DNA from: Maribacter vaceletii
Lineage (GTDB): Bacteria > Bacteroidota > Bacteroidia > Flavobacteriales > Flavobacteriaceae
Length of the DNA stretch: 64,000 nt
Direction: 5' to 3'
Assembly: GCF_003634105.1 (NCBI RefSeq)
Contig: NZ_RBIQ01000007.1
Coordinates: forward strand, 992,001 to 1,056,000
The notes below the pieces were generated by a model. That model had not been told where the DNA came from, did not search any database, and worked only from the letters and a program-made list of their open reading frames with translations. The position numbers were made by a program, and so were the translations under genes. Of this stretch, positions 2,768-16,024 are shown piece after piece (position 1 is the stretch's first letter; each line of letters starts with the position of its first letter).

Positions 2768-3823
2768 ATGGCTCATTTTTATCCCCTTACAATAAAACAT
2801 ATAAAACATTTAACCCCTAGTTCTGTAGCAATAACCCTTAGTATTCCAAAGGAACATTTGCAAACGTTTCATTTTGAGCCTGGGCAATATATTACCATAA
2901 AAAAAGAAATAAAGGGAAAAGAATTGCGTAGAGCATATTCTATAAGTTCTTCTCCGAAAAGCGATTCTATTACTATTGGAGTTAAAAAAATAGATGGTGG
3001 TGGTTTTTCTGACTATGCTAACACCAAACTTAAAGAAGGGGATATTTTAGAGGTTATGGCACCAGAAGGGCGTTTTGTTTTTAATGCAACCTCTTCTGTG
3101 AAAAATATTGCTGCAATTGCTGCTGGTAGTGGTATTACTCCTATTATGAGTATTGCAAAAGCTGTTTTAGATAGTAATGCAGAAAGCAAATTTGTTTTGG
3201 TCTATGGAAACAAGTCTTATAAAGAGACTATGTTTTATACCGATTTAATGAAATTACAATTGGAGTACGCCAATCGCTTTTTTGTATATTTTACCAATAG
3301 CCAAACCAAAGAAGAAAATTCTCTTTTTGGTAGGATTGATGTTTCTACTATAAACTATGCACTAAAAAACAAACATAAAGATGTTACTTTTGATGGTTAC
3401 TATCTTTGCGGACCAGAGGCATTAATTACTTTAGCTTCTGCCACTTTAGAAGAGAATGAAGTTCCTAAAGATAAAATACATTTTGAACTTTTTACCAGTA
3501 CCGAAATTAAAGAAGAACTTCCTGTAACTGAAAGTGCAGACGGAAAAACACAAGTAACCGTTGTGGTTGATGATGAAGAATTTTCATTGTCTATGAATAA
3601 GAAAGAAATTGTTTTAGATGCTGTTCTTAAAGAAAATATTGATGCTCCTTACTCTTGCCAAGGCGGTGTTTGTAGTAGCTGTATTGCTCGTGTTACCGAA
3701 GGAAAAGCTACTATGGTAAAAAATCAGATTTTAACGGATGGCGAAATTGAAGAAGGATTAATACTTACTTGCCAAGCGCACCCAATAACCCCTACTTTAA
3801 AGGTAGATTTTGATGATGTCTAG
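2768..3823 (+). CDS. PaaE-like flavin/ferredoxin reductase with C-terminal 2Fe-2S domain
   Basis: 351 residues with three domains: an FAD-binding barrel (about 1-105) with the flavin motif RRAYS at 54-58, an NAD(P)-binding domain (about 110-235) opening with AAGSGITP at 118-125, and a plant-type ferredoxin domain (about 260-351). The ferredoxin cysteines are C297, C302, C305 and C335 (CX4CX2CX29C). Such proteins pass electrons from NAD(P)H through FAD to a 2Fe-2S centre and on to an oxygenase or other acceptor. PaaE is the reductase of phenylacetyl-CoA epoxidase, but no paa genes lie nearby, so the partner here is unknown. The last 32 bases overlap the 3' end of the convergent patatin gene. 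Confidence 0.85.
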   Translation: MAHFYPLTIKHIKHLTPSSVAITLSIPKEHLQTFHFEPGQYITIKKEIKGKELRRAYSISSSPKSDSITIGVKKIDGGGFSDYANTKLKEGDILEVMAPEGRFVFNATSSVKNIAAIAAGSGITPIMSIAKAVLDSNAESKFVLVYGNKSYKETMFYTDLMKLQLEYANRFFVYFTNSQTKEENSLFGRIDVSTINYALKNKHKDVTFDGYYLCGPEALITLASATLEENEVPKDKIHFELFTSTEIKEELPVTESADGKTQVTVVVDDEEFSLSMNKKEIVLDAVLKENIDAPYSCQGGVCSSCIARVTEGKATMVKNQILTDGEIEEGLILTCQAHPITPTLKVDFDDV

Positions 3824-4601
3824 ATTCTAAATACGTTTCTATCTTTTTGCTGGCGTGTTCATAGCCTATTTCAAAAGCTTTTTGCATTCCTCGTTTATCT
3901 AAAACACCTATTTTTTCTAGGGCAATTGGCTCTATAACTATGTTACAGGATTTTAGTTTTTGTTTAGAAGAAGCATAAATCATTAAATTAGTTACTCTTG
4001 CAGCAAGTTTAACTGCATTTTTAAGTTCTTTCTTCTCTAAACTACTTATTACAGAGACATTGCTTCCTATGATAAAATTTGCTGCTTTTTGCACTGGCTC
4101 TATCGGAAAGTTGTTCATGATTCCGCCATCTGCATATAGAGTACCATTCATTTCTACAGGACTAAACACTGGTGGTAAAGCTGCAGAAGCTAATAAAGGT
4201 CGTATTAATTCTCCCGAAGAAAAATAAGTTTCCTCCCCTTTCTGTAAATTAGTGGCTACTAAAAACAATTTCTTTCCTAAAGCTTCAAAAGAATCTTCTG
4301 GAAAGTAGTTCTTAAAAAGGGTAATATATTTATCTGTATCTATAAAGCCTGCCTTGGCCATAGTTAAAAAGTTATATTTAAAGATTGGTGTTTCCTTAAA
4401 AAAATCTAACATTTCTTCTATACTATTTCCGTTTGCATACAATGCCCCTACTAAAGCACCTGCACTACTTCCAGAAATTGTAGTGGCATTAATATTATTC
4501 TCCTTCATAGCCTTAATTACACCTATGTGAGCAAGCCCACGAACGCCCCCTCCAGAAAGTACTAGGCCTACCGAATCTAAGTCTATTATTGTCTTTGCCA
4601 T
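3792..4601 (-). CDS. Patatin-like phospholipase (RssA-type)
   Basis: 269 residues. The oxyanion-hole motif GGGVRG is at 17-22, the nucleophile motif GSSAG at 44-48 (Ser46) and the catalytic Asp in DGG at 158-160, so the Ser-Asp dyad of patatin hydrolases is intact. Length and layout match single-domain bacterial patatins such as RssA. No signal peptide is seen, so the likely place of action is the cytoplasm or inner membrane face, on phospholipid or acyl ester substrates. The gene runs convergent to the ferredoxin reductase and shares 32 bp of coding sequence with it. Confidence 0.88.
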   Translation of the reverse strand: MAKTIIDLDSVGLVLSGGGVRGLAHIGVIKAMKENNINATTISGSSAGALVGALYANGNSIEEMLDFFKETPIFKYNFLTMAKAGFIDTDKYITLFKNYFPEDSFEALGKKLFLVATNLQKGEETYFSSGELIRPLLASAALPPVFSPVEMNGTLYADGGIMNNFPIEPVQKAANFIIGSNVSVISSLEKKELKNAVKLAARVTNLMIYASSKQKLKSCNIVIEPIALEKIGVLDKRGMQKAFEIGYEHASKKIETYLESRHHQNLPLK

Positions 4602-4933
4602 TTTACCATAATACTTGCCTAAAATTACCCTTTTTATACTAAAAAATCATTCTAAAATTCTAAATAAAACAAACCCTATAGTTTGTTTTGTTTCTATTAT
4701 TTAAAGAAGTAATTTCAAAACAACTTTTTACCTAACAAACAACTCTCTTTACCGTATTCTAAGTAAATATATAAGTTTAAACCACTTTCTATTACAAACC
4801 ATTTAGTCTTTTCTTTATTCTTAATTAAAAACACAAAAAAATAAAAGAAACAATACTTTGTAATGAAAAAAAGAAGCTATCGACCAATGTAAAAGCATCT
4901 TTTTTTGTGTAAGTTTACTTTAGAATTAAGGAA
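4602..4933. other. Intergenic region between patatin gene and operon
   Basis: 332 bp with no credible ORF. It holds the palindrome at 4666-4689, a weaker relative at 4794-4811, and near the downstream gene a -7-like sequence (TAAGTTTA at about 4911) that could be the operon promoter. It must carry the start signals of both divergent transcripts. Confidence 0.5.
4666..4689. promoter_or_regulatory. Palindromic operator-like site (TetR-type candidate)
   Basis: A perfect inverted repeat with 9-base arms (AAAACAAAC / GTTTGTTTT) around a CCTATA centre. The 18-bp core at 4669-4686 has the form ACAAAC-N6-GTTTGT, the same form as the palindrome at 14194-14211 in front of the tetR gene (14 of 18 bases identical). 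It sits in the 332-bp gap between patatin and the organoarsenic operon. A weaker relative with a perfect left half-site lies at 4794-4811. Binding by the TetR protein is inferred. Confidence 0.5.
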
Positions 4934-5644
4934 ATGAAATTTAAAAGTTCAAAACAAACTGCCATTGTTTTTTTTGCGCAATCTTCTATCGAGGAAGTAA
5001 AGCACAAAAAAATAGCTAACGGTATTTCTTTATTTTCAGCCTTAACAAAAAAGACATTAGACACTATTTATAAGTCTAAGCTTCCATTTTTTCATTTTAC
5101 AGAACAAGAACAAGTAGGTAATACTTTTGGAGAGCGATTTACGAATGCAATAAGTTCTGTGTATGATTTAGGTTACGAACGCGTTATTGCAATTGGCAAT
5201 GATACCCCACAGTTAACAAAGCATCATTTATTAAAAGCTGCTCAAGAAATTTCTGAAAATAAAACCGTTCTAGGATTGTCTTTAGATGGTGGTTTTTACC
5301 TTATGGGTTTCCATAAAGCCCAATTTAATGCCCATTTATTTAAAAATTTATCTTGGCAAACAAATGCACTTAAAGAACAAGTTTTTACTTGGATAAAGGC
5401 AAATAAAATTAATGTCTTAAAACTAAATGCACTTAAAGATATTGATACCGAAAAAGATGTTTTTACAATATCTTCTTTATACATTCTAAGAAATTCTAGT
5501 TTTTACATTCTACTGCTTCAATTTGTTCAAGAAACCAAAAACATATTCTACTATATACAAAATATAGTTATTTCATCTACAAAAAGTGTCTTCTACAATA
5601 AAGGGTCGCCTTTTTTACAATTACAACACCCTTTTTTTAATTAA
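4934..5644 (+). CDS. DUF2064 glycosyltransferase-like protein, first gene of operon
   Basis: 236 residues. The core (about 8-180) matches the DUF2064/TIGR04282-type nucleotidyl/glycosyltransferase-like fold: GERF, IGNDTPQL for the usual IGxDxPxL, LDGGFYLMGF for DGGYxLxG, and DIDTEKD at the end. Members are annotated as arsenosugar-biosynthesis glycosyltransferases, which fits ArsS downstream. Two points are unusual. The N-terminal basic loop, normally GKVKTRL, reads EVKHKKIA. There is also a hydrophobic C-terminal tail of about 55 residues ending in FYNKGSPF, beyond the usual family end. Cytoplasmic; substrate unknown. First gene of the operon. Confidence 0.75.
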   Translation: MKFKSSKQTAIVFFAQSSIEEVKHKKIANGISLFSALTKKTLDTIYKSKLPFFHFTEQEQVGNTFGERFTNAISSVYDLGYERVIAIGNDTPQLTKHHLLKAAQEISENKTVLGLSLDGGFYLMGFHKAQFNAHLFKNLSWQTNALKEQVFTWIKANKINVLKLNALKDIDTEKDVFTISSLYILRNSSFYILLLQFVQETKNIFYYIQNIVISSTKSVFYNKGSPFLQLQHPFFN

Positions 5645-5698
5645 ATAATTTTGCAGACATTTTTCCTGTCTGCTAATAATCATTCTTTATACCAATTA

Positions 5699-8600
5699 AT
5701 GAAGTATACCATGCTTTTATTTGTCCTATTTGCTAGTGCATTAGGCCATTCACAACAAACCATTTCCGGAACTATTACAACTATTTTTGGAGACCCAATT
5801 TCTAATGTAAATATTACATTAGTAGGAACCTCAAAAGGAACTGCCTCAAATACTAAAGGGGCTTATGCTATAGATGTTCCAAACTTCCAGGGCGCATTAC
5901 AATTTTCTGCCTTAGGGTATACCACGCAAGTAATACCAATACATTATAATGAAACCGTAAATGCAGTTTTAGAAGAATCTTCAGAACAATTAGAGGAGGT
6001 AGTTTTAACTGCTTTAGGCTTTAAAAGAGAAACTAAAGAACTAGGTTATGCCGTACAAAGCATAAATGCAAAAGGAGTAACCGAAGTAAAATCTGCCAAT
6101 TTCTTAGATAATTTAAGTGGTAAACTAGCTGGTGTAACTATAAATCAAGGTGCAACTGGTGTTGGTTCTTCGTCTAAAATAACTATTAGAGGAGAAGCTT
6201 CCTTCTCTAACAACAATCCTCTTTTTGTGGTAGATGGGGTTCCTATTAATAACAACTCGGTTTTTAATTTTACTAATGAAGCTGCTGCTGGTTTTCAAGA
6301 AATAGATTTTGGAAACGGTGCCATGGAGGTAAATCCAGATGATATTGAAGAGGTTTCTGTATTAAAAGGCCCAAGTGCAGCTGCACTTTACGGTACCAGA
6401 GCATCTAACGGTGTTATATTAATACAAACAAAAAGTGGTGCAAAAAGCAAAGGTTTAGGTATAAGTTACAATACAAGTTTCTTTGTAGATTCTGCTTTTC
6501 GTTTACCTGACTTTCAAAATGAATACGGACAAGGTAATTCTGGACAATTTGCATATGTAGATGGTCTAGGTGGTGGAACAAACGATAATATTACCTACAG
6601 TTGGGGGCCAAGATTAGATGCAGGTAATCTAGTGCCTCAGTTTAATAGTCCTGTAACTCTAGCAAATGGTACGGTAGTACGTGGTGGTGATACTGCTCTT
6701 TACAATGGTTTGCCAATTACTGCTACACCTTTTACCTCTAACCCAGATAATCTTAAAGATTTTTATGAAACAGGAACAACAGCAATAAACAATTTAGCAA
6801 TAGCTTCTAATTTTGATAAAGGAAATCTAAGACTCTCTTTTACCGATTTACGAAGTGAGTCTATTATTCCAGGTGTAAATTTGGATCGCCAAACCATAGC
6901 TGCTCGTTTAGGATTTCATCCAACAGAAAAGCTACATATAAATTCTTCTATTAGCTATGTAAATTCGCAAAGCGATAATAGACCCTCTAGTGGATATGGT
7001 TCCGAAAACGTAAATTATTCTTTAGTAGCATGGGGGCCTCGTTCTTTAAACATTAAGGATCTAAAAAACTATTGGCAACCTGGTTTAGAAGGCACACAAC
7101 AATATTCTTTTAATTATACTTTTTTTGACAACCCTTATTTTATCTTAAATGAAAATACTAACTCTTTTAATAGAGATAGGGTATTTGGAAACCTTTCAGC
7201 AAAATATGATATAACAGATAATTTAAGTGCAACCATCCGTACAGGAATGGATTATTCTAGTGAGCTAAGACAGCTTAAACGTGCCTATAGTTCTAACCGA
7301 TTTAGAAACGGAGCATATGCCGAACATGATGTATTCTTTAGAGAAATAAATACCGATTTTTTACTGAATTATAAAAATAATTTTGGTGATTTTAAGGTCG
7401 ATATATCTTTAGGTGCCAATAGAATAAACCAAAAAGCGGTAACTAACCAATCGCAAACCACGAGTTTAGCACAACCAGGAATTTTTAAATTATCTAATGC
7501 GGCATCACCAATTGAAGTATTTGAGTTTGCATCCAAAAAAAGAATTAATAGCATCTATGGCCTTGCAAAGTTTGGCTATAAAAATTACTTATTTTTAGAT
7601 GTTACAGGAAGGAACGATTGGTCCAGTGCTCTTGCAACACCATTTTCAGTAGATAATACATCTCTCTTTTATCCTTCGGTATCTTCAAGTTTTATAGTAT
7701 CTGAAGTAGTAAATCTACCGCAAGAAATCTCTTTTGCAAAATTAAGAGCTAGTTGGGCACAAGTTGGTAATGATACCAACCCTTACCAAACTACAGGAGC
7801 TTTTGTAGCACAAACTCCTTTTAATGGTCAGCCAACTTTTAGTGACCAAAATACTATTGCAAATGCAAACCTAAAACCTGAACAAACATCATCGTTTGAA
7901 ATTGGTGCCGATATTCGTTTTTTTAAAGACCGATTAAGTTTTGATATATCCTATTACAATGCGGTCACTAAAGACCAAATTATTTCTTTACCTATTGGTA
8001 TATCTTCGGGCTTTACACAACAGGTAGTTAATGGTGGAGAAGTGCGCTCTAAAGGGGTAGAGATTATTCTTAATGCTACTCCTGTTCATACTACGGATTT
8101 TAGTTGGAATACTACTTTTAATTTTAGTAGAAACAGAGCAACTGTAGAAAGTTTGCCGCAAGACGGAGGCCTATTAACATTGGCTTATTCAAGAATATAC
8201 GATAGTCAAAACCAAACGGTATTTTTACAAGCAGAAGAAGGAGGCCGTATAGGGGATTTGTATGGTACGGGCTATCTAAAAAATGAAAACGGCGATTTTG
8301 TTCTTACCAATGAAGGTCGCTACATACCAGATAATAATTTACAAAAACTAGGAAATTATAATCCCGATTTTATCTTAGGGTTTAATAATCAATTCTCTTA
8401 TAAAAAATGGGATTTAGGGTTTTTGTTCGATTGGAGACAAGGCGGAATTATAGTTTCTAGAACAAGAGCTTTAGGAAATGTTGGTGGTCAATTAGCAGAA
8501 ACTGCTTTTAGACCAGAAGAAGGTATTATTGCTCAAGGTGTTGTTAATGTTGGTACAATAGATAATCCTGTTTATGAACCCAACACTACAGCAGTAACCG

Positions 8601-8902
8601 CAGAAAGTTATTATCGTCAATTTTATGACCGTAACCATGAAGAAAACAATACTTACGATGCTTCCTTTTTAAAACTACGCCAAGTTTCCCTTGGGTACAC
8701 TTTTGATAATTTAAAAGTATTTAAAAACGACGCTACTTTACGTGTTTCTTTAATCGGAAAAAACCTTTTTGCAATAACAGAAAATCCACACTTTGACCCT
8801 GAACAATTAGCTGTTCAAGGACAAGGTTTTATTAGCGGTATAGAAGACATGTCTTACGCTACCACTAGAAGCTTTGGAATAAAAGCCGGATTTAATTTTT
8901 AA
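5699..8902 (+). CDS. SusC/RagA-family TonB-linked outer membrane transporter
   Basis: 1067 residues from ATG 5699, chosen because MKYTMLLFVLFASALGHSQ is a clear signal peptide; the longer TTG start would add a hydrophilic leader. A carboxypeptidase-regulatory-like domain (QTISGTITTIFGDPISNVNI, about 20-95) comes first, then the plug (about 110-225) with SNNNPLFVVDGVPI, typical of SusC/RagA, then a TonB-dependent beta barrel. The protein ends in Phe (FGIKAGFNF), as barrels do. With SusD it forms a lidded outer-membrane uptake channel energised by TonB. No glycoside hydrolase or sigma/anti-sigma pair is nearby, so a polysaccharide substrate is not supported. The neighbours suggest an organoarsenic compound. 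Confidence 0.92.
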   Translation: MKYTMLLFVLFASALGHSQQTISGTITTIFGDPISNVNITLVGTSKGTASNTKGAYAIDVPNFQGALQFSALGYTTQVIPIHYNETVNAVLEESSEQLEEVVLTALGFKRETKELGYAVQSINAKGVTEVKSANFLDNLSGKLAGVTINQGATGVGSSSKITIRGEASFSNNNPLFVVDGVPINNNSVFNFTNEAAAGFQEIDFGNGAMEVNPDDIEEVSVLKGPSAAALYGTRASNGVILIQTKSGAKSKGLGISYNTSFFVDSAFRLPDFQNEYGQGNSGQFAYVDGLGGGTNDNITYSWGPRLDAGNLVPQFNSPVTLANGTVVRGGDTALYNGLPITATPFTSNPDNLKDFYETGTTAINNLAIASNFDKGNLRLSFTDLRSESIIPGVNLDRQTIAARLGFHPTEKLHINSSISYVNSQSDNRPSSGYGSENVNYSLVAWGPRSLNIKDLKNYWQPGLEGTQQYSFNYTFFDNPYFILNENTNSFNRDRVFGNLSAKYDITDNLSATIRTGMDYSSELRQLKRAYSSNRFRNGAYAEHDVFFREINTDFLLNYKNNFGDFKVDISLGANRINQKAVTNQSQTTSLAQPGIFKLSNAASPIEVFEFASKKRINSIYGLAKFGYKNYLFLDVTGRNDWSSALATPFSVDNTSLFYPSVSSSFIVSEVVNLPQEISFAKLRASWAQVGNDTNPYQTTGAFVAQTPFNGQPTFSDQNTIANANLKPEQTSSFEIGADIRFFKDRLSFDISYYNAVTKDQIISLPIGISSGFTQQVVNGGEVRSKGVEIILNATPVHTTDFSWNTTFNFSRNRATVESLPQDGGLLTLAYSRIYDSQNQTVFLQAEEGGRIGDLYGTGYLKNENGDFVLTNEGRYIPDNNLQKLGNYNPDFILGFNNQFSYKKWDLGFLFDWRQGGIIVSRTRALGNVGGQLAETAFRPEEGIIAQGVVNVGTIDNPVYEPNTTAVTAESYYRQFYDRNHEENNTYDASFLKLRQVSLGYTFDNLKVFKNDATLRVSLIGKNLFAITENPHFDPEQLAVQGQGFISGIEDMSYATTRSFGIKAGFNF

Positions 8903-8912
8903 GATATTACCA

Positions 8913-10364
8913 ATGATATATAAAAAATATAAAGTACTAATAACACTTTGCATTATTGCAACAGTATTTTCTTGTACTAAAGACTTTAAAGAAATAAATA
9001 CAAATCCTAATGCTCCCGTTAGTGTACAACCTAGTTTACTTTTAAGGCAGGTTATCTACGATTATGGAGAACAAATGTCCTATGAAGGTTTTACCGCAGG
9101 TAATTTATTAGGACAATATACTACAGCATTAGATTTTAATCTTTTTGATCGCCACGATTTAAAATCACCACAACTTGGTGGCAATCCTTGGCCAATATTA
9201 TATACTAATCTTAGAGACAATGAACAAATACTAACACTTGCTTTAGAGAACGAAACCCTTGCGGTTTATGAAGGTCCTTCTAGAATACTAAAAGCGTATA
9301 TGGCAGGCGCACTTACCGATATTTTTGGGGATGTACCCTATTCCGAAGCTTTTAAAGGAAAAGACATTACAGTAACTCCTACTTATGATACACAAGAATC
9401 TATTTACTTAGAAGAAGGTGGTATACTAGATAATTTAGAAAAAGGAATTACTGCTATAGAGAGCTATAATGGTTCTATAACTTTAGAAGGTGATATTCTT
9501 TTTAATGGCAATTTAGATGCTTGGGTACGTTTTGCAAAATCGTTACAATTAAAATTTTTAATGCGTATTTCAGGCAAAGAAAATGTTGCAACACAAATTC
9601 AAGCCCTATATACCGAAAATAATTTCATTGCAAATAACACTCAAAATGCTACGTTCGATTTTACAGATGGAGAACCAAACAATTTTAGGTTAGCAAGATT
9701 ACGAATTGGAGATTTTAACAACTTTGTTTTATCAGAAACAATGGATGAAATTTTAACCAATCTAAACGACCCAAGATTAGAAACTTTATTTAGACCCTTT
9801 AGCAATAGTACTACAGGAGAATATAATGGTTTACTAAATGGTATTGATGCCTCACAAACCTCCATTGCATTAGCAGATTATTCTTTAACAGGAACTATTT
9901 TTAGAGAAAATCCTGGTGTTTTAGATGCTAATTTTATGACTAGTTGGGAAACCAAGTTTTTACTTGCAGAAGCTGCAGAAAAATTACTAATCTCTGCAAA
10001 TGCACAAACCTTATATGAACAAGCTGTAGAAGAATCTTTTGCATATTGGGGTACAACATTACCCGTAAATTACCTTACCACAGTTGCTGCGTATGGGCAG
10101 AACGGACAAAATCCTATAGAGCAAATTTGCACTCAAAAATGGATTGCTACTATGATAAATGGTTACGAAGGATGGATAGAATATAGAAGAACTGGTTACC
10201 CAAACCTTAAACCAATATCTGCTAGTTTAAATAACAACCTTCTTCCTGTTCGTATGCCATACCCTGCAGAGGAAGAAGCATTAAATAGTAGTAATTATAA
10301 TATCGCTGAAGAAAATACAGATGGTAATAATATAAACGTAAAAGTTTGGTGGGACCAAGATTAA
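8913..10364 (+). CDS. SusD/RagB-family outer membrane lipoprotein
   Basis: 483 residues with a lipoprotein signal ending at Cys21 (ATVFSC) followed by TKDFKEINTNPNAP, the usual opening of the SusD-like_2 group. It is exposed on the cell surface and acts as the substrate-binding lid of the SusC barrel encoded 10 bp upstream. The central part has the expected ILKAYMAGALTDIFGDVPYSEA segment, and the C-terminal part contains KWIATMINGYEGWIEYRRTGYP. No truncation is seen. Its ligand is unknown; operon context suggests an arsenic-containing sugar or lipid headgroup. Confidence 0.92.
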   Translation: MIYKKYKVLITLCIIATVFSCTKDFKEINTNPNAPVSVQPSLLLRQVIYDYGEQMSYEGFTAGNLLGQYTTALDFNLFDRHDLKSPQLGGNPWPILYTNLRDNEQILTLALENETLAVYEGPSRILKAYMAGALTDIFGDVPYSEAFKGKDITVTPTYDTQESIYLEEGGILDNLEKGITAIESYNGSITLEGDILFNGNLDAWVRFAKSLQLKFLMRISGKENVATQIQALYTENNFIANNTQNATFDFTDGEPNNFRLARLRIGDFNNFVLSETMDEILTNLNDPRLETLFRPFSNSTTGEYNGLLNGIDASQTSIALADYSLTGTIFRENPGVLDANFMTSWETKFLLAEAAEKLLISANAQTLYEQAVEESFAYWGTTLPVNYLTTVAAYGQNGQNPIEQICTQKWIATMINGYEGWIEYRRTGYPNLKPISASLNNNLLPVRMPYPAEEEALNSSNYNIAEENTDGNNINVKVWWDQD

Positions 10365-10376
10365 AATAAAAAACTG

Positions 10377-11714
10377 ATGGATATAAAAATTTGGCAATGG
10401 GCATTAGTAATAACATCTAGTTTGGTGTTGTTTTTCTTGTCTCCATTGGCTAAAAATACCAATCAGTTTTTTATGGCTAAGCAACGTAAAAAAACGCCTA
10501 ATACCTTTATGCTAATGGGTAGTTTGGTAATCTCTTGGATATTTGCCAAGAGTATTACTAATGCTGCAAATTTAGGCTTAGCTTTTGGTTTAGTAGGTGG
10601 CGTTGCATATGCTGCATATTACGTGTCTTTTGCTGTAGCCGGCATTATAATTTATAAGATGCGAACTAAGGGTAATTACATAAGCATTCATCAATTTTTA
10701 ACCACAAAATTTGGTAAAAGTGCCGTTGCGGTTTTCTCTATATTAATAGCTTTTCGTTTGTTTAATGAAGTTTGGAGTAATACCATGGTAATTGGCTCCT
10801 ATTTTGGAGATCCAGATAGCACTGCATATTACTGGTCTATTTTAGTTTTTACAGTGCTTACTCTATCCTATGTATTAAAAGGCGGAATGAGTAGTTCCAT
10901 TTTTACAGATGTAATTCAAATGGGGTTTTTCTCTATATTATTACTTGTTATTCTTGGTGCTATTTTTAGTTCAGATGCAAATTTTACAACTTCCAAAGTA
11001 ATAACCTCTGGCACTTGGTCTTTTGATATGGGATTAAACTTATTATTTGCAGCATTATTACAATCTTTAAGTTATCCTTTTCATGACCCTGTTCTTACAG
11101 ACAGAGGATTTATTAGCAGCCCAAAAATTACTCTAAAAAGCTTTTTATGGGCATCTTTTATTGGCGCTATTTGTATTATACTATTTAGTGTAATTGGAAT
11201 TTATGCACAGTCTTCTGGGTTGCAAGGGCAGGCTGCCGTGGAAGTTGGTAAGGCTTTTGGAGTTGTTATTTTATTAGTAATTAATTTTATTATGATAACC
11301 TCAGCGGCATCTACTTTAGATTCTACATTTTCTTCTTTTTCTAAATTACTAGCTATAGATTTAAATTTAGGAAATACCCTAAAATTTGGCAGATTATCTA
11401 TGATTGTAATAGCAGTTATAGGAACTATTCCTGTTTTCTTAAATGCCGAAATATTATCTGCAACAACCATTAGTGGCACTATGGTAATTGGGTTAACACC
11501 AATATTTATTTTTTGGCATAAAAAAGCAGATATACTAAGTTTTCATTTAAGTGTTTTTACAGGAATTATTTTCGGTTTTTTATTAATTTTTAAAATATTC
11601 CCACAACAATTAATTTTTACAACTGGCAAGTATGCCGATTTGCTTTGGGTTAATTTCTGGGGTATTATTTGTTGTCTAATCTTATATTTTATACCTACAT
11701 GGATAAAAAAGTAA
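10377..11714 (+). CDS. Sodium:solute symporter (SSS family)
   Basis: 445 residues, nearly all membrane segments (12 or more), with the SSS-type core GLVGGVAYAAYYVSFAVAGI and an AASTLDSTFSSFSKLLAIDL stretch typical of Na+-binding TM8 (Ser/Thr rich). The family couples Na+ entry to uptake of sugars, nucleosides, amino acids or vitamins across the inner membrane. It begins 12 bp after susD and overlaps the next gene by 16 bp. It would therefore carry the compound delivered to the periplasm by SusCD into the cytoplasm. Substrate is inferred from context only. Confidence 0.85.
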   Translation: MDIKIWQWALVITSSLVLFFLSPLAKNTNQFFMAKQRKKTPNTFMLMGSLVISWIFAKSITNAANLGLAFGLVGGVAYAAYYVSFAVAGIIIYKMRTKGNYISIHQFLTTKFGKSAVAVFSILIAFRLFNEVWSNTMVIGSYFGDPDSTAYYWSILVFTVLTLSYVLKGGMSSSIFTDVIQMGFFSILLLVILGAIFSSDANFTTSKVITSGTWSFDMGLNLLFAALLQSLSYPFHDPVLTDRGFISSPKITLKSFLWASFIGAICIILFSVIGIYAQSSGLQGQAAVEVGKAFGVVILLVINFIMITSAASTLDSTFSSFSKLLAIDLNLGNTLKFGRLSMIVIAVIGTIPVFLNAEILSATTISGTMVIGLTPIFIFWHKKADILSFHLSVFTGIIFGFLLIFKIFPQQLIFTTGKYADLLWVNFWGIICCLILYFIPTWIKK

Positions 11715-12562
11715 TACATCTTGGAGAACGCAAAGGAAAAATACTAGTTTTTGGTGGCGTTTATAGCAATTTACAAGCTTTGCAAGCACTAAAATATGTG
11801 TCTGAAGAAGAAGGTATTGTTCCTGAAAATTGTATTTGTACTGGAGATATTATTGGATACTGCTCCCAACCTGAAGAAACGGTTAAATTGTTTAGGGATT
11901 GGAACGCATTAAGTATTCTAGGAAATGTAGAATTACAATTAGTGGAAGGAGCCGAAGATTGCGGCTGCGATTTTACGCAAGGTAGTAGATGTGATAATTT
12001 TTCTAAATTATGGTACCCTTATGCGCAAAGTAAACTATCTGCCAATTCCATAGAATGGATGGGAACTTTACCCCATCATATTTCTTTTACTTATGGAACT
12101 AAAAAAGTTAGTTTAGTACATGGTTCCTATACTAATATATCCGAATTTATTTTTGAGTCTACCTCAGAAAAAATAAAAGAAGAAAGCTTAAAGAACTTAA
12201 ATTCTGATGTTATTCTTGCAGGACATTGCGGTCTACCTTTTCATTCTATTATAAAAGAAAAATTATGGCTAAACCCAGGTGTAATAGGCATGCCAGCCAA
12301 TGATGGCACTTCTAGAGTTTGGTACATGATTTTAGAAAATATAGAAGGAAACATAAAGTATACTCATAGGTATTTAAATTACAATTACGAAAAAGCTTCC
12401 TCCTTAATGGAAGAAAATAATTTACCCATAGAATATACCAAAACCTTAGTTTCTGGTATATGGGATAACATGGAAATATTACCCGAAATAGAAAAGAAAT
12501 TACAAGGAATACCTTATGATTTTGAAACATTTATTAAAGAACATCAAACTATAAAAAAATAA
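11699..12562 (+). CDS. Metallophosphoesterase-family protein with altered metal site
   Basis: 287 residues from ATG 11699 (MDKKVIHLGERKGKILVFGG); a start at 11669 would lie inside the symporter gene. The fold is that of YfcE/MPE-like calcineurin phosphoesterases: CTGDIIGY (D50) for motif II, LGNVE (N76) for motif III, LVHGS and ILAGHCGLP for motifs IV-V. Several ligands are absent: motif I reads GGVYSN where D-x-H-[GS]-N is expected, GNHE has become GNVE, and GHTH has become GHCG. Five cysteines (C45, C47, C55, C88, C90 area) cluster in the N-terminal third. It may be a pseudo-enzyme, or bind a different metal or arsenic; this is inference. Confidence 0.7.
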   Translation: MDKKVIHLGERKGKILVFGGVYSNLQALQALKYVSEEEGIVPENCICTGDIIGYCSQPEETVKLFRDWNALSILGNVELQLVEGAEDCGCDFTQGSRCDNFSKLWYPYAQSKLSANSIEWMGTLPHHISFTYGTKKVSLVHGSYTNISEFIFESTSEKIKEESLKNLNSDVILAGHCGLPFHSIIKEKLWLNPGVIGMPANDGTSRVWYMILENIEGNIKYTHRYLNYNYEKASSLMEENNLPIEYTKTLVSGIWDNMEILPEIEKKLQGIPYDFETFIKEHQTIKK

Positions 12563-12564
12563 AC

Positions 12565-12900
12565 ATGGCAGATTCTTATTACGACCCAAAAGATTTAAGA
12601 AAATTCGGAAAAATTACCGAATGGAGTGAAAATTTAGGAACAAAGTTCTTTGACTATTATGGGGAGGTTTTTAAAGAAGGAGCTTTAACAGCCCGCGAAA
12701 AATCTTTAATTGCATTAGCTGTAGCACACACAGAAAAATGTCCCTATTGCATAGATGCCTATACAAAAGATGGATTGCAAAAAGGAATTACTAAAGAAGA
12801 AATGATGGAGGCTGTTCATGTAGGTGCTGCAATAAAAAGTGGTGCAGCCTTAGTACATGGTGTGCAAATGATGAATAAACATGATAAATTATCTATGTAA
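12565..12900 (+). CDS. AhpD/carboxymuconolactone decarboxylase-like CxxC protein (arsenosugar-associated)
   Basis: 111 residues, 2 bp after the phosphoesterase gene. A CMD/AhpD helical domain with the redox motif H55-T-E-K-C59-P-Y-C62 and the downstream VHVGAAIKSGAALVHG helix. AhpD-like CxxC proteins work as thiol peroxidases or disulfide reductases. A subgroup of this size is annotated as an arsenosugar biosynthesis-associated peroxidase-like protein and is found beside ArsS, as here. Cytoplasmic. It might keep the sulfur or arsenic chemistry of the neighbouring enzymes reduced, which is inferred. Confidence 0.85.
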   Translation: MADSYYDPKDLRKFGKITEWSENLGTKFFDYYGEVFKEGALTAREKSLIALAVAHTEKCPYCIDAYTKDGLQKGITKEEMMEAVHVGAAIKSGAALVHGVQMMNKHDKLSM

Positions 12901-12947
12901 CCTCCTAAATATTTGAAGGAAAACAAAAAAATATTTTTATTAAAATG

Positions 12948-12988
12948 AAAGTAATGCATAAAATAGAGTACTAAGCATGTATTACTTT
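12948..12988 (+). other. Intercistronic hairpin before arsS
   Basis: Arms AAAGTAATGCAT and ATGTATTACTTT pair over 12 positions with one G-U wobble around a 17-base loop. It fills the 103-bp gap before arsS, the only large gap inside the operon. No T tract follows directly, so processing, mRNA stabilisation or partial attenuation are all possible. Confidence 0.4.
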
Positions 12989-13003
12989 TACTAATTAGAA
13001 AAA

Positions 13004-14059
13004 ATGGCTACAAAATCATTACAAGCAAAGGGTGAAGATCTAGCAATAGCTAATAAGCAACTAGAAATTTTAAATGGAGGTATTTTCGCTGATGGAGAAC
13101 TTCCTTATTTTAAGGATAATATTGCTAAAATTGGTCATTTTCCTTTACGTCCAAAAAAGTTAGAAATTCTTCAGATAAATGTTGGTTATATGTGTAACCA
13201 AGTTTGTGAGCACTGTCATGTAGACGCTGGTCCTGATCGTAAAGAGATTATGACTCGTGAGACTATGCAGCAGTGTTTAGAAGTAATAAAAAACACAGGA
13301 GCACATACCTTAGATTTAACTGGAGGTGCTCCAGAAATGAACCCTGACTTTCGTTGGTTTGTAGAAGAAGCTGCTAAAGCTGGTATTAAAGATTTTATTG
13401 TACGCTCTAACCTAACTATTATTAGAGCAAATAAGAAGTATTATGATTTACCAGATTTCTTTAAAAAACATAATGTACATGTAATCTCATCTATGCCACA
13501 TTATACCCGTGGAAAAACAGACAAACAACGTGGTGATGGTGTTTTTGATAAATCTATTAAAGCATTGCAAGAACTAAATGAACGTGGCTATGGTATGCCT
13601 GGTAGTGATTTGCGGTTAGATTTGGTTTATAATCCATCTGGTGCATATTTACCTGGAGACCAAATGGCTTTACAGGCCGATTTTAAAAAGGCTCTTAAAG
13701 AAGATTTTAATATAGATTTTCATAATTTGTTTGCAATTACTAACTTACCAATAGCACGGTTTTTAGATTACCTAATAGCGTCAGAAAATTATGAAGACTA
13801 TATGTATGCATTAGTAGAAGCATATAATCCTTCTGCTGTTGCAAATGTTATGTGTACCAATACTATTTCTATAAGTTGGGATGGTTGGTTATATGATTGT
13901 GATTTTAACCAAATGTTAGATTTAAAGGTGGCTAGTAAGGTAAAACATATTAAAGATTATAATGAAGATATATTAAATGATAGAAACATAATTATATCGC
14001 AACATTGTTATGGTTGTACTGCTGGTTCTGGTAGTAGCTGCCAAGGAACAGTTGCTTAA
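13004..14059 (+). CDS. arsS: Arsenosugar biosynthesis radical SAM protein ArsS
   Basis: 351 residues. The radical SAM 4Fe-4S motif is C64-NQV-C68-EH-C71, followed by DLTGGAPEMNPDF (the GGE-like SAM-contact strand). The C-terminal third is the Cys-rich DUF3641-type domain with CTNTISISWDGWLYDCDFNQ and a terminal CYGCTAGSGSSC. This layout and length match ArsS, which is proposed to generate the deoxyadenosyl-arsenic linkage in arsenosugar formation. Relatives in other phyla are selenoproteins; this gene has no in-frame TGA and ends with TAA. The arsenite methyltransferase ArsM, its usual partner, is not in this window. Last gene of the operon, followed by a terminator. Confidence 0.9.
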   Translation: MATKSLQAKGEDLAIANKQLEILNGGIFADGELPYFKDNIAKIGHFPLRPKKLEILQINVGYMCNQVCEHCHVDAGPDRKEIMTRETMQQCLEVIKNTGAHTLDLTGGAPEMNPDFRWFVEEAAKAGIKDFIVRSNLTIIRANKKYYDLPDFFKKHNVHVISSMPHYTRGKTDKQRGDGVFDKSIKALQELNERGYGMPGSDLRLDLVYNPSGAYLPGDQMALQADFKKALKEDFNIDFHNLFAITNLPIARFLDYLIASENYEDYMYALVEAYNPSAVANVMCTNTISISWDGWLYDCDFNQMLDLKVASKVKHIKDYNEDILNDRNIIISQHCYGCTAGSGSSCQGTVA

Positions 14060-14103
14060 AGAATTTTTTTCTGCGTAGTTCCCTCGGCAGGAAAAATGTT
14101 TGC

Positions 14104-14130
14104 AAAACCTCTATTAATTTAGGGGTTTTT
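14104..14130 (+). terminator. Intrinsic terminator of the organoarsenic operon
   Basis: Arms AAAACCTCTA and TAGGGGTTTT pair with one T-G wobble around a TTAATT loop and are followed by T residues. It lies 45 bases after the arsS stop. Confidence 0.8.
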
Positions 14131-14193
14131 GTATTTTAAATCTCCACTTAAAAATTAAAAAAGACCCGTTTATCTTATTTATATTACCGTTTA

Positions 14194-14211
14194 ACAAACT
14201 AGGTAGTTTGT
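14194..14211. promoter_or_regulatory. Palindromic operator upstream of tetR
   Basis: Arms ACAAACTA and TAGTTTGT around a GG centre form an 18-bp near-perfect palindrome, the usual size for a TetR-dimer site, 150 bp before the tetR start. It is nested in further inverted repeats (TTATCTT 14170-14176 with AAGATAA 14222-14228; CCCG 14165-14168 with CGGG 14240-14243). The same ACAAAC-N6-GTTTGT form occurs upstream of the operon at 4669-4686. Autoregulation and control of the operon are inferred. Confidence 0.55.
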
Positions 14212-14361
14212 AATTATAGTGAAGATAATGGTAGTTCATCGGGCTTTTTACATTTTAACGATTTTACACTACACTACACCTTTTAAAATACTAGCAAAAC
14301 TAAGTTCGGCGGTTCTTTGTATAGAGACTTAACGGTCTGTTTAACCCAAAACCCAAATCTT

Positions 14362-14979
14362 ATGAGTAATAGTATAAAACGCATGGCTACCATGCAAAGA
14401 ATGCAAGTAACAGGACTAGAATTAATCTACAAAAAAGGATATTACAACACTAGTGTAGACGATATCTTAAAAGAGCTTTCCCTTTCTAAAGGTGCTTTTT
14501 ACTATCATTTTGATTCTAAAGAAGACTTTTTTGTTCAAATTATAGACAACCTTATTGTGCGTAGAGTATATAGTATGTTAATTGAACCTATAGAAGGCCA
14601 TGACAATCCTTTAGATTTAATTACAAATTGTTTTGATAATGCTCTGGAAACTGCAGTTCATAATGAAATGGACTTTGGTTTTATGTTAAGTAATTTAATT
14701 GCCGAATTTAACGGTAAAAATGATACCATAATGAAACATTTAACCGATGTTTTAAAAATATGGGAAGTTAACTTAGTTACTACATTACAAAAAGGAAAAT
14801 TTAATGGTTTTATAGATAGGCATGTAGACTGTGAAGGCGTTGCTACCTATTTAATGAGTTCTTTTATTGGTATTAGAACACTAATGACCGATGTTGCTCC
14901 AAGTGCACGTAAATACAGGTTTATGGCACAATTAAGACAATACTTAAAAAGTATAGAACTAAAACCAGAAAACGTATAG
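14362..14979 (+). CDS. TetR/AcrR-family transcriptional regulator
   Basis: 205 residues from ATG 14362 (MSNSIKRMATMQ); an earlier start at 14317 would add a non-conserved leader. The N-terminal helix-turn-helix is typical: a helix with GLELIYKKGYYNTSVDDILKE, then SLSKGAFYYHFDSKEDFF. The C-terminal part is a helical ligand/dimer domain with no obvious cysteine pair for direct As(III) sensing. It lies just downstream of arsS on the same strand, with a palindrome of TetR-site size upstream. The most likely role is repression of itself and the SusCD-ArsS operon in response to a pathway compound, which is inferred. It converges with the GT9 gene with 1 bp between stops. Confidence 0.88.
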   Translation: MSNSIKRMATMQRMQVTGLELIYKKGYYNTSVDDILKELSLSKGAFYYHFDSKEDFFVQIIDNLIVRRVYSMLIEPIEGHDNPLDLITNCFDNALETAVHNEMDFGFMLSNLIAEFNGKNDTIMKHLTDVLKIWEVNLVTTLQKGKFNGFIDRHVDCEGVATYLMSSFIGIRTLMTDVAPSARKYRFMAQLRQYLKSIELKPENV

Positions 14980-14980
14980 A

Positions 14981-16024
14981 TTACTTTTTACTTAAAATTT
15001 CAATAACTTTTTGAACTACAGTTTTGGGTTCTATAGTATACATTACCCTTTCATAACCCTCTGGGAATTTATTTCCGTAAACAGATGTTGGTAAAAAAGG
15101 GTATTGTTTAGTATCAGATGTTAAACAATTTTCCATCTCTTGCCCAAAAGGAGCAAAACCAGCATAAGGGTGTGTAACCCCCCAAAGTGTAATTGTAGGT
15201 AAACCATACATTGCAGCTAAATGAGAGTTACCACTATCCATGGCCAACATAACATCTAGATTAGAAATAAGGGTAAGCTCTTCTTTAAAAGGCAAATTAC
15301 CTGCAATATTTATACAATTAGTATAAGTCTCTTCTAATTTTTGAAGTTGCTTTTTTTCCGATTTTCCGCCTCCAAAAAGTAAAATAGTATTCTCATTTGT
15401 AGCGTCTATTTGCTTAATAACCTTTTCCATTAATTCCAAAGGATACATTTTTCCTTTAAAAGCTGCAAAAGGGGCAATTCCTATCCATTTTTTTGGAGAA
15501 GATCCTACTAATTTTACAATAGTATCTTCTATAGGCTCTCTTTGTAAAACATTTTCTTTAGAAAGGTTTATGGTATACCCTAATTTTCTAAAAACGTCTG
15601 CATATCTTTCAGGCGTAGTTTTTAAAGGTTGTATGGTCTTAACTTTAAGAGCCGTTAAATCCTTTTTCTCTTGTCTGCCTTTATTTATTTGAACAAAAGG
15701 AATAGAGCCTAGTACAAAGTATGTTTTTAAAATATTACTTCGTAAAACATTATGTAAATCTGCCACTTGGGAAATACCTAAATTTTTAAGCTCTTTAGAT
15801 AGTTTTCTTAAACCAAGAACACCCTTATGTTTCCCTTTAACATCAGCCTCATATACCTGCACATTTTTTAATTGCGCAAACATAGGTCTAAAAAAAGCTC
15901 TGGTTAAAACCGTAATTTTTATTTGAGGGTTTTGTTTAATTAATGTAGAAAGCACAGGAATAGTCATTGCTACATCTCCCATAGCGGATAATCGAATAAC
16001 AAGAATGTGCTTTTGTGTGCCCAC
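14981..16024 (-). CDS. Glycosyltransferase family 9 (heptosyltransferase-like)
   Basis: 347 residues. The GT9 opening HILVIRLSAMGDVAMTIPVL carries the conserved Asp (D17), and the C-terminal DSGNSHLAAMYGLPTITLWG is the nucleotide-sugar-binding motif of ADP-heptose:LPS heptosyltransferases. The enzyme would add a sugar to the lipid A core at the cytoplasmic face. The DUF4254 gene lies 12 bp upstream and is probably cotranscribed, as is usual in flavobacteria. The exact sugar is not known. Confidence 0.88.
   Translation of the reverse strand: MGTQKHILVIRLSAMGDVAMTIPVLSTLIKQNPQIKITVLTRAFFRPMFAQLKNVQVYEADVKGKHKGVLGLRKLSKELKNLGISQVADLHNVLRSNILKTYFVLGSIPFVQINKGRQEKKDLTALKVKTIQPLKTTPERYADVFRKLGYTINLSKENVLQREPIEDTIVKLVGSSPKKWIGIAPFAAFKGKMYPLELMEKVIKQIDATNENTILLFGGGKSEKKQLQKLEETYTNCINIAGNLPFKEELTLISNLDVMLAMDSGNSHLAAMYGLPTITLWGVTHPYAGFAPFGQEMENCLTSDTKQYPFLPTSVYGNKFPEGYERVMYTIEPKTVVQKVIEILSKK

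What the first reader, a model, noticed from the sequence alone, without database searches (positions are those of the whole stretch)
4934..14059. An outer-membrane SusC/SusD uptake pair built into an ArsS-type organoarsenic operon
Seven genes run in one direction with gaps of 2-103 bp or overlaps: DUF2064 glycosyltransferase, SusC, SusD, sodium symporter, metallophosphoesterase-like protein, CxxC AhpD-like protein, ArsS. The last two and the first belong to families annotated with arsenosugar biosynthesis (established). SusC/SusD and SSS would give a complete path from outside to cytoplasm (established for the families). No glycoside hydrolase is present, so SusCD is unlikely to serve a polysaccharide. 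The inferred model is import of an arsenosugar, its precursor or breakdown product, coupled to its making or recycling. No ArsM methyltransferase is in the window.
Basis: partly seen in the sequence, partly recalled or inferred. Interest (0 to 1): 0.8.

Follow-up and report, generated by a model that had tools for sequence, protein, structure and literature searches.

The report
Arsenic-sugar enzyme with its own importer
Many marine Bacteroidota keep an outer-membrane importer, a sodium symporter and an odd cysteine-rich protein next to the enzyme that starts arsenic-sugar synthesis, and these bacteria more often lack the enzyme that methylates arsenic, which suggests (not proven) that they take an arsenic compound from outside and build it into their own molecules.

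Summary
Confirmed: seven co-directional genes, cofC1-SusC-SusD-SSS-MPE-AhpD-ArsS. The linkage is not strain-specific. In 199 genomes of the family, SSS and MPE orthologues occur in the same 30, all with ArsS; in 29 the SSS lies within 10 kb of it; SusD is in 27. Two gene orders occur, and the unit reaches other families of the class.

New: (1) the window's DUF2064 gene is a cassette-specific paralogue, not the canonical TIGR04282 enzyme. (2) The "phosphoesterase" has lost metal ligands, keeps four invariant Cys, and is fused to AhpD in five genomes. (3) No ArsM was found in the window's genome, which keeps Rhod-cofC2-PNP-DUF547-GT2; ArsM absence is enriched with the cassette (15 of 30 against 17 of 118). 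(4) A sister cofC1-SusCD in two ArsS-negative genomes carries an ABC importer, a nucleoside hydrolase and, in one, a methylthioribose-kinase-like protein.

Best reading: uptake of a small organoarsenical or 5-modified riboside that feeds the ArsS pathway. The substrate is inferred, not shown.

The parts
4934..5644 (+). cofC1: DUF2064 / TIGR04282-like paralogue that travels with SusC/SusD; lacks the LGKVKTRLA motif
   Evidence: 101.8 bits, below the TIGR04282 cut-off of 134; falls in a support-1.0 clade of 36 with no KTRLA-type member
5653..5673 (.). hairpin (7 bp stem) in the cofC1-SusC gap; role unknown
   Evidence: reported on the minus strand; upstream sequences of other genomes are printed, conservation not scored
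5699..8902 (+). SusC-type TonB-dependent outer-membrane transporter (ORF open from 5651; ATG at 5699)
   Evidence: TIGR04056 590.9 bits; nearest solved structure BT_2264, E 5.5e-140
8913..10364 (+). SusD-type surface lipoprotein (SusD-like_2), lipoprotein Cys21 invariant
   Evidence: PF12771 294.1 bits; C21 invariant in 27 of 27; nearest solved sequences 5j5u, 4puc
10377..11714 (+). sodium:solute symporter of a sharply bounded clade
   Evidence: weak PF00474; AF2 model pLDDT 79, fold matches SGLT2, CHT1, SiaT; in 30 of 199 family genomes, nothing else at E<=1e-40
11699..12562 (+). cysteine-rich degenerate metallophosphoesterase-like protein (MPE)
   Evidence: PF12850 35.4 bits, cut-off 27; model pLDDT 86, nearest fold SapH Ap4A hydrolase; D-x-H of motif I lost, C55 C88 C90 C98 invariant in 35 of 35
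12565..12900 (+). AhpD-like CxxC protein (TIGR04169); one reading frame with MPE in five other genomes
   Evidence: 194.2 bits; fusions in L095, L100, L107, L126, L273
13004..14059 (+). ArsS, radical SAM C-As bond forming enzyme (TIGR04167)
   Evidence: 438.9 bits; only hit over the cut-off in the genome; CNQVCEHC = CX3CX2C motif in the translation
14104..14129 (+). terminator-like hairpin (10 bp stem) after ArsS
   Evidence: 11 such sites in the region, 5.8 expected

Best explanation
This is an uptake cassette dedicated to the ArsS pathway. SusC/SusD bind a scarce small molecule at the surface and move it across the outer membrane by TonB energy, and the sodium symporter takes it into the cytoplasm. 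The molecule is most likely an organoarsenical that already carries methyl groups: an arsenosugar, another 5-modified ribofuranoside, or a dimethylarsenical. Inside, the cysteine-rich MPE and the CxxC AhpD protein handle or reduce it. ArsS then joins the trivalent dimethylarsenic to the 5'-deoxyadenosyl group, and PNP, cofC2 and the TIGR04283 glycosyltransferase, coded elsewhere in the genome, finish the product. Shown here: the genes, their co-inheritance, their tie to ArsS, the absence of ArsM. Established by others for ArsS: adenosylation of arsenic. Inferred: the substrate, the order of the late steps, and the roles of MPE, AhpD and cofC1.
For: SSS and MPE orthologues occur in exactly the same 30 of 199 genomes, all ArsS+, 29 with SSS within 10 kb of ArsS; SusD orthologues in 27 of the 30 (Fisher p 7e-5). 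In 80 named loci: MPE 80, ArsS 79, SusC and SusD 76 each. Seven further genomes with the MPE orthologue all have ArsS, 5 of them in other families; of 6 genomes with only a distant MPE homologue 1 has ArsS. MPE and AhpD are one reading frame in 5 genomes, 4 of them near relatives and 1 of another family. The own genome lacks ArsM but keeps Rhod-cofC2-PNP-DUF547-GT2. ArsM is absent in 15 of 30 cassette genomes against 17 of 118 others with ArsS (p 9e-5); ArsM loss is faster with the cassette on the ArsS tree (LR 14.8; 10.3-17.7 over 12 trees). A sister cofC1-SusC-SusD unit in two genomes without ArsS or ArsM is followed by an ABC importer, a nucleoside hydrolase and, in one, an MTR-kinase-like protein, so this SusCD lineage plausibly takes ribosides. 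The nearest solved SusC, BT_2264, is recalled to belong to a peptide transporter, so a small substrate is plausible.
Against: 15 of 30 cassette genomes keep ArsM, and ArsM lies in the fetched stretch of 25 of 80 named cassette loci. 17 cassette-less ArsS+ genomes also lack ArsM (5 of them in the low-quality set), so this import is not the only way to live without it. The independent-pairs test found only 2 pairs on well supported branches and says nothing; the direction of the association is open, since a model in which the cassette is gained where ArsM is absent also gains up to LR 11.8 on resampled trees (0.0 on the full alignment). If whole arsenosugars were imported, ArsS should be dispensable, yet ArsS is in every cassette genome examined. 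Three of 30 have SSS-MPE without SusCD. Rhod-cofC2-(PNP)-GT2 also persists in 7 of 8 ArsS-negative genomes with the GT2 gene, so that operon is either fed by salvage or not only for arsenic. I found no transport or speciation data.
Confidence: 0.48

Rival explanations
1. The cassette imports a non-arsenic building block of the same pathway, such as a nucleoside or ribose donor, or the aglycone (a glycerol- or sulfonate-type acceptor) onto which the arseno-ribose is transferred.
For: Nucleoside hydrolase and MTR-kinase-like neighbours of the sister SusCD; PNP and a cofC2 of a nucleotidyltransferase-like family in the late pathway; the symporter model resembles sugar, choline and sialic-acid carriers.
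Against: Does not explain why ArsM absence is enriched with the cassette.
Confidence: 0.22
2. It is a salvage system for 5'-deoxyadenosine, methylthioadenosine or methylthioribose-like compounds, and is tied to ArsS because ArsS chemistry makes or is inhibited by them.
For: The sister locus codes a nucleoside hydrolase and, in G129, a protein matching S-methyl-5-thioribose kinase at 103.7 bits, below its cut-off of 275.
Against: The window's genome has three further, weaker matches to the radical SAM model but a single symporter of this clade, at ArsS; an outer-membrane importer is not needed for an internal by-product.
Confidence: 0.13
3. The cassette serves sensing or detoxification: it takes up an arsenical made by competitors or algae, and the arsenosugar pathway neutralises it.
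For: A TetR gene lies downstream and keeps its place in part of the clade; the AhpD CxxC motif and the MPE cysteines could bind trivalent arsenicals.
Against: Active import of a toxin is an unlikely defence; TetR keeps its place also without the cassette and without ArsS.
Confidence: 0.1
4. Neighbourhood without shared function: SusCD-SSS-MPE is a nutrient locus that happens to sit beside ArsS.
For: SSS is about 180 kb from ArsS in 1 of 30 family genomes, and MPE is on another contig than ArsS in 3 of 7 further genomes.
Against: Two different gene orders, MPE-AhpD fusions in two families, and ArsS in 37 of 37 genomes with the MPE orthologue, even where unlinked.
Confidence: 0.04

Closest known systems
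NanOU sialic-acid uptake (NanO SusC-like, NanU SusD-like) with NanT, Bacteroidetes
   Same: SusC/SusD-type pair plus a dedicated inner-membrane carrier for a small molecule (PMC3969230, passages)
   Different: NanT is an MFS permease and its genes sit with sialic-acid catabolism; here an SSS symporter, a degenerate phosphoesterase and ArsS
BT_2263/BT_2264 SusCD of Bacteroides thetaiotaomicron
   Same: nearest solved SusC by sequence (5fq6, E 5.5e-140); BT_2263 is among the weaker SusD matches (E 5e-24)
   Different: recalled to carry oligopeptides; no symporter or ArsS neighbours are known to me
Arsenosugar biosynthesis genes of Synechocystis (SsArsM, SsArsS)
   Same: ArsS family; ArsS with ArsM catalyses the initial steps (PMC8552651 and PMC12159101, passages; the primary papers were not read)
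   Different: no uptake cassette is mentioned in the passages seen; ArsM is missing here
SapH-type Ap4A hydrolases and YfcE-like phosphodiesterases
   Same: fold of the MPE model (3qfm E 2.7e-13), PF12850
   Different: motif-I D-x-H and the second H of GHxH lost; invariant cysteines

Membership tests
ArsS (TIGR04167) | score over the curated cut-off | tested here: met
   438.9 bits, cut-off 300
ArsS (TIGR04167) | radical SAM CX3CX2C motif | tested here: met
   CNQVCEHC in the translation, read by eye
ArsS (TIGR04167) | adenosylation of a methylated arsenical | not testable with these tools
   biochemistry known for other members, from citing papers only
TIGR04282 arsenosugar glycosyltransferase | score over cut-off; KTRLA-type motif | tested here: not met
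   window gene 101.8 bits, cut-off 134; motif absent
SusC/SusD uptake pair | SusC and SusD models over cut-off, adjacent genes, lipoprotein Cys | tested here: met
Polysaccharide utilisation locus | glycoside hydrolase or lyase beside SusCD | tested here: not met
   none among the ten proteins scanned at 3792-16024; the rest of the window was not scanned
Sodium:solute symporter (SSS) | Pfam gathering score | tested here: not met
   21.1 bits, cut-off 22.8
Sodium:solute symporter (SSS) | fold of the family | tested here: met
   model matches SGLT2, CHT1, SiaT, vSGLT
Active metallophosphoesterase | D-x-H, GD, GN, H, GHxH metal ligands (motifs recalled) | tested here: not met
   GD, GN, H and first GH kept; D-x-H and second H lost
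Complete arsenosugar operon (ArsM-ArsS-PNP-TIGR04282-TIGR04283) | arsenosugar ArsM present | tested here: not met
   none in the genome
Complete arsenosugar operon (ArsM-ArsS-PNP-TIGR04282-TIGR04283) | PNP, TIGR04282-type and TIGR04283 genes present | tested here: met
   near 1.60 Mb of contig C1: TIGR04283 239.2 bits; PNP and cofC2 by blastp to relatives (81% and 64%), not scanned with the models in this genome

The most novel reading that the evidence does not exclude
Marine Bacteroidota actively forage for organic arsenic as a raw material. A TonB-dependent, sodium-driven importer collects arsenosugars or methylated arsenic released by algae; a former phosphoesterase, rebuilt with cysteines and sometimes fused to a CxxC protein, acts as the thiol-based receiver or reductase of the arsenical for ArsS; and the cell can then discard arsenic methylation.
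Probability: 0.25. Interest if true: 0.87.

Novelty: new variant of a known kind. Interest (0 to 1): 0.64.

Why it matters
If the substrate is an organoarsenical, this would be a dedicated uptake system for organic arsenic, and it would show bacteria spending energy to obtain arsenic rather than only to expel it. It would make testable why arsenosugars exist at all, and it would link algal arsenic to the bacteria that live on algae. Even with another substrate, it gives a genetic handle on unknown steps of arsenosugar synthesis: a cysteine-rich pseudo-phosphoesterase that can be one protein with the AhpD-like partner of ArsS.

Tried and rejected
Polysaccharide locus: rejected, no glycoside hydrolase among the ten proteins scanned and a BT_2264-type SusC. 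Strain-specific accident: rejected. Window DUF2064 gene as the canonical arsenosugar enzyme: rejected. Strict replacement of ArsM by the cassette: rejected as a rule, since 15 of 30 keep ArsM and 17 of 118 cassette-less ArsS+ genomes lack it; kept as a statistical trend. Independent-pairs test: too few supported branches to say anything. Rates test: rows G002 (very divergent ArsS), G140 and G095 (incomplete genomes) were dropped, leaving 91; only 94 of 148 ArsS+ genomes had been fetched (all 30 with the cassette, 64 of 118 without, taken from the top of the ArsS list and on long contigs). Promoter-like sites: 34 found, 44.4 expected, so no information. Terminator-like sites on the + strand also occur inside the SSS gene (10631, 11624) and MPE gene (12058); I take them for chance but did not test it. 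The cysteines of MPE could not be placed in space, since no model coordinates were available. Fold matches of the symporter name several substrate classes and do not choose between them. Paper searches gave no listing whose title or shown abstract start describes a SusCD or TonB uptake system tied to arsenosugars; three papers were opened, in passages only, and subscription journals are mostly not held.
Full report
Observation. Seven genes run on the + strand from 4934 to 14059 as described. ArsS, AhpD-like, SusC and SusD pass their models' cut-offs; the symporter is just under Pfam's, but its predicted model matches SGLT, choline and sialic-acid symporters. A terminator-like hairpin follows ArsS at 14104-14129 and none lies in the susD-symporter gap. 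SSS and MPE overlap by 16 nt in 26 of 30 genomes and by 19 in 2; in the other 2 they are 28 and 30 nt apart, so the two are probably translated together. The SusD-SSS gap varies from -77 to 552 nt in 27 loci, taking the first start codon of each ORF, so one transcript is likely but not assured everywhere.

Spread. The genus is Maribacter by the nearest named records: the congener G152 shares a contig length of 509,052 bases with an uncultured Maribacter record. In 199 genomes of the family (198 genera), ArsS occurs in 148. SSS orthologues (67% identity or more, nothing else at E<=1e-40) occur in 30. MPE orthologues (55% or more; other hits 32% or less) occur in the same 30. SusD orthologues (64% or more; next 41%) occur in 27 of them. 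All 30 have ArsS; in 29 SSS and ArsS lie within 10 kb, the exception being G087 at about 180 kb. Cassette in 30 of 148 ArsS+ and 0 of 51 ArsS- genomes: Fisher p 7e-5.

Neighbourhoods. I fetched ArsS loci of 80 of the 148 genomes, then 14 loci of the 13 cassette genomes not yet covered (with six other loci), and mapped 95 loci with the window; 94 hold ArsS, the one without being the SSS locus of G087. SusC, SusD, SSS and MPE all lie beside ArsS in 13 of the first 80, and SSS-MPE without SusCD in 3 more. There are two orders: cofC1-SusC-SusD-SSS-MPE-AhpD-ArsS, as in the window, and AhpD-ArsS-cofC1-SusC-SusD-SSS-MPE, mostly followed by rhodanese-cofC2-PNP. In 80 named loci (the best 80 of at least 515 relatives found), MPE is present in 80, ArsS in 79 (the miss is a 6.4-kb contig), SusC and SusD in 76 each (two of the four misses are cut by contig ends). 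In 395 genomes of the phylum, MPE orthologues (356 bits or more) occur in 9, five of them in other families of the class. Those five have SSS beside MPE; SusCD are present in the four whose wider stretch I fetched, and the fifth, G368, was seen only 1.5 kb either side. Of the 9, G000 and G176 were already covered; the other 7 all have ArsS, within about 7 kb in four and on another contig in three. As a control, of 6 genomes with only a distant MPE homologue (about 110 bits) 1 has ArsS.

Two DUF2064 genes. The pathway's own TIGR04282 enzyme (cofC2, KTRLA motif; the member tested, in L083, scores 211.5 bits) is a different gene from the window's cofC1 (101.8 bits, motif lost). In a FastTree tree of 106 sequences cofC1 forms a support-1.0 clade of 36 with no KTRLA member; three motif-less sequences fall outside it. 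cofC1 also sits beside AhpD-ArsS without SusCD in several relatives of the window's clade. In the window's genome cofC2 lies near 1.60 Mb of the contig with rhodanese, PNP, DUF547 and TIGR04283 GT2.

ArsM. The arsenosugar ArsM model gives at most 28.6 bits in the genome, and the general ArsM model at most 43.6. Five ArsM+ relatives (G032, G056, G164, G011, G026; two of them with the cassette) have ArsM between PNP and GT2; in the window's genome and its congener ArsM alone is missing from that row, and 14 of the 15 cassette genomes without ArsM were seen to keep Rhod-cofC2-PNP and GT2 (G153 was not in that set). ArsM is absent in 15 of 30 cassette genomes and in 17 of 118 other ArsS+ genomes (Fisher p 9e-5); without low-quality genomes 14 of 29 and 12 of 99. 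A rates model on the ArsS tree (91 tips) gives ArsM loss 0.46 without and 6.0 with the cassette, LR 14.8; over 12 FastTree trees (one full, 11 resampled) LR is 10.3-17.7. The gene tree is weakly supported, the independent-pairs test had only 2 usable pairs, and the direction is open. So the trend is there but is no rule: ArsM lies in the fetched stretch of 25 of 80 named cassette loci, and four cassette-less genomes with an otherwise full operon also lack it (G013, G027, G133, G134).

MPE. The model (pLDDT 86) is closest to SapH, an Ap4A hydrolase. In 35 sequences (30 of the family, 5 from other families) D50, C55, N76, C88, C90, C98, H141, H176 and N192 never change, while the D-x-H of motif I has become G-x-Y. 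Three distant homologues (28% identity) keep D-x-H and GHTH and also C88/C90, so C55 and C98 are the marks of this branch. In five genomes MPE and AhpD are one reading frame; four are near relatives of the window's genus and one, G368, is of another family. This ties MPE to the ArsS partner independently of SusCD. A thiol-based role in handling trivalent arsenicals is my inference.

Sister locus. In two genomes without ArsS and ArsM (G001, G129) lies a related cofC1-SusC-SusD (SusC 43-44%, SusD 38-41%) followed by an ABC importer and a nucleoside hydrolase; G129 adds a protein similar to S-methyl-5-thioribose kinase, below its cut-off. The unit stands between the same patatin and TetR-GT9 genes as in the window: in G129 in the window's orientation, with SSS-MPE-AhpD-ArsS replaced; in G001 turned round. 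At E<=1e-40 the hydrolase is found in these 2 of 199 genomes only. Both keep Rhod-cofC2-PNP-GT2. 5-methylthioribose is the sulfur counterpart of the 5-dimethylarsinoyl-ribose of arsenosugars (recalled chemistry), so this SusCD lineage plausibly takes up 5-modified ribosides. The same result is a warning: Rhod-cofC2-(PNP)-GT2 is kept in 7 of the 8 ArsS-negative genomes that have the GT2 gene, so it may not serve arsenic alone.

Logic of the substrate. A cassette that goes with loss of ArsM but never of ArsS should supply something between the two: a dimethylated arsenical, or an arsenosugar that is first broken down. Three of 30 genomes do without SusCD, which fits a molecule small enough to pass porins when plentiful. 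None of this has been measured.

Literature. ArsS and ArsM are described as catalysing the initial steps of arsenosugar synthesis in Synechocystis, and a radical SAM enzyme as adenosylating arsenic (PMC8552651 and PMC12159101, passages read; the primary papers were seen only as references). The NanOU system shows that a SusCD-type pair can serve a small molecule with a dedicated inner-membrane carrier (PMC3969230, passages). Ten searches listed no paper whose title or shown abstract start is about a SusCD tied to arsenosugars (numbers in Tried and rejected).

Verdict. Real, conserved and, as far as these searches show, undescribed in its combination; mechanism likely in outline, substrate open.

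Noticed in passing
L095, L100, L107, L126, L273: MPE and the AhpD-like protein are one open reading frame in five genomes, four near relatives and one from another family.
   Followed up: yes
L132:4877-14976, L133:3712-15211: Sister cofC1-SusC-SusD locus with ABC importer, nucleoside hydrolase and (L133) a methylthioribose-kinase-like protein in ArsS-negative genomes.
   Followed up: partly
L237, L238, L240-L242, L244, L245: Rhodanese-cofC2-(PNP)-GT2 operon, whose families are named after arsenosugars, persists in genomes without ArsS or ArsM.
   Followed up: partly
L160, L175, L177, L183, L192, L202; L180, L182, L185, L191: ArsM lies in the cassette's own neighbourhood, after ArsS or after MPE.
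   Followed up: no
G549 contig C12, 541683 and 547789 (L266): A distant MPE homologue (107.7 bits) lies about 5 kb from an ArsS gene in another family.
   Followed up: no
L138 (own genome, contig C4 near 73.9 kb): A second TIGR04283-type glycosyltransferase (198.9 bits) next to a DUF547-like gene, away from the arsenosugar operon.
   Followed up: no
window 14317-14979: A TetR-family gene downstream keeps its place next to a heptosyltransferase-like gene with or without the cassette and even without ArsS, so it is probably not its regulator.
   Followed up: partly
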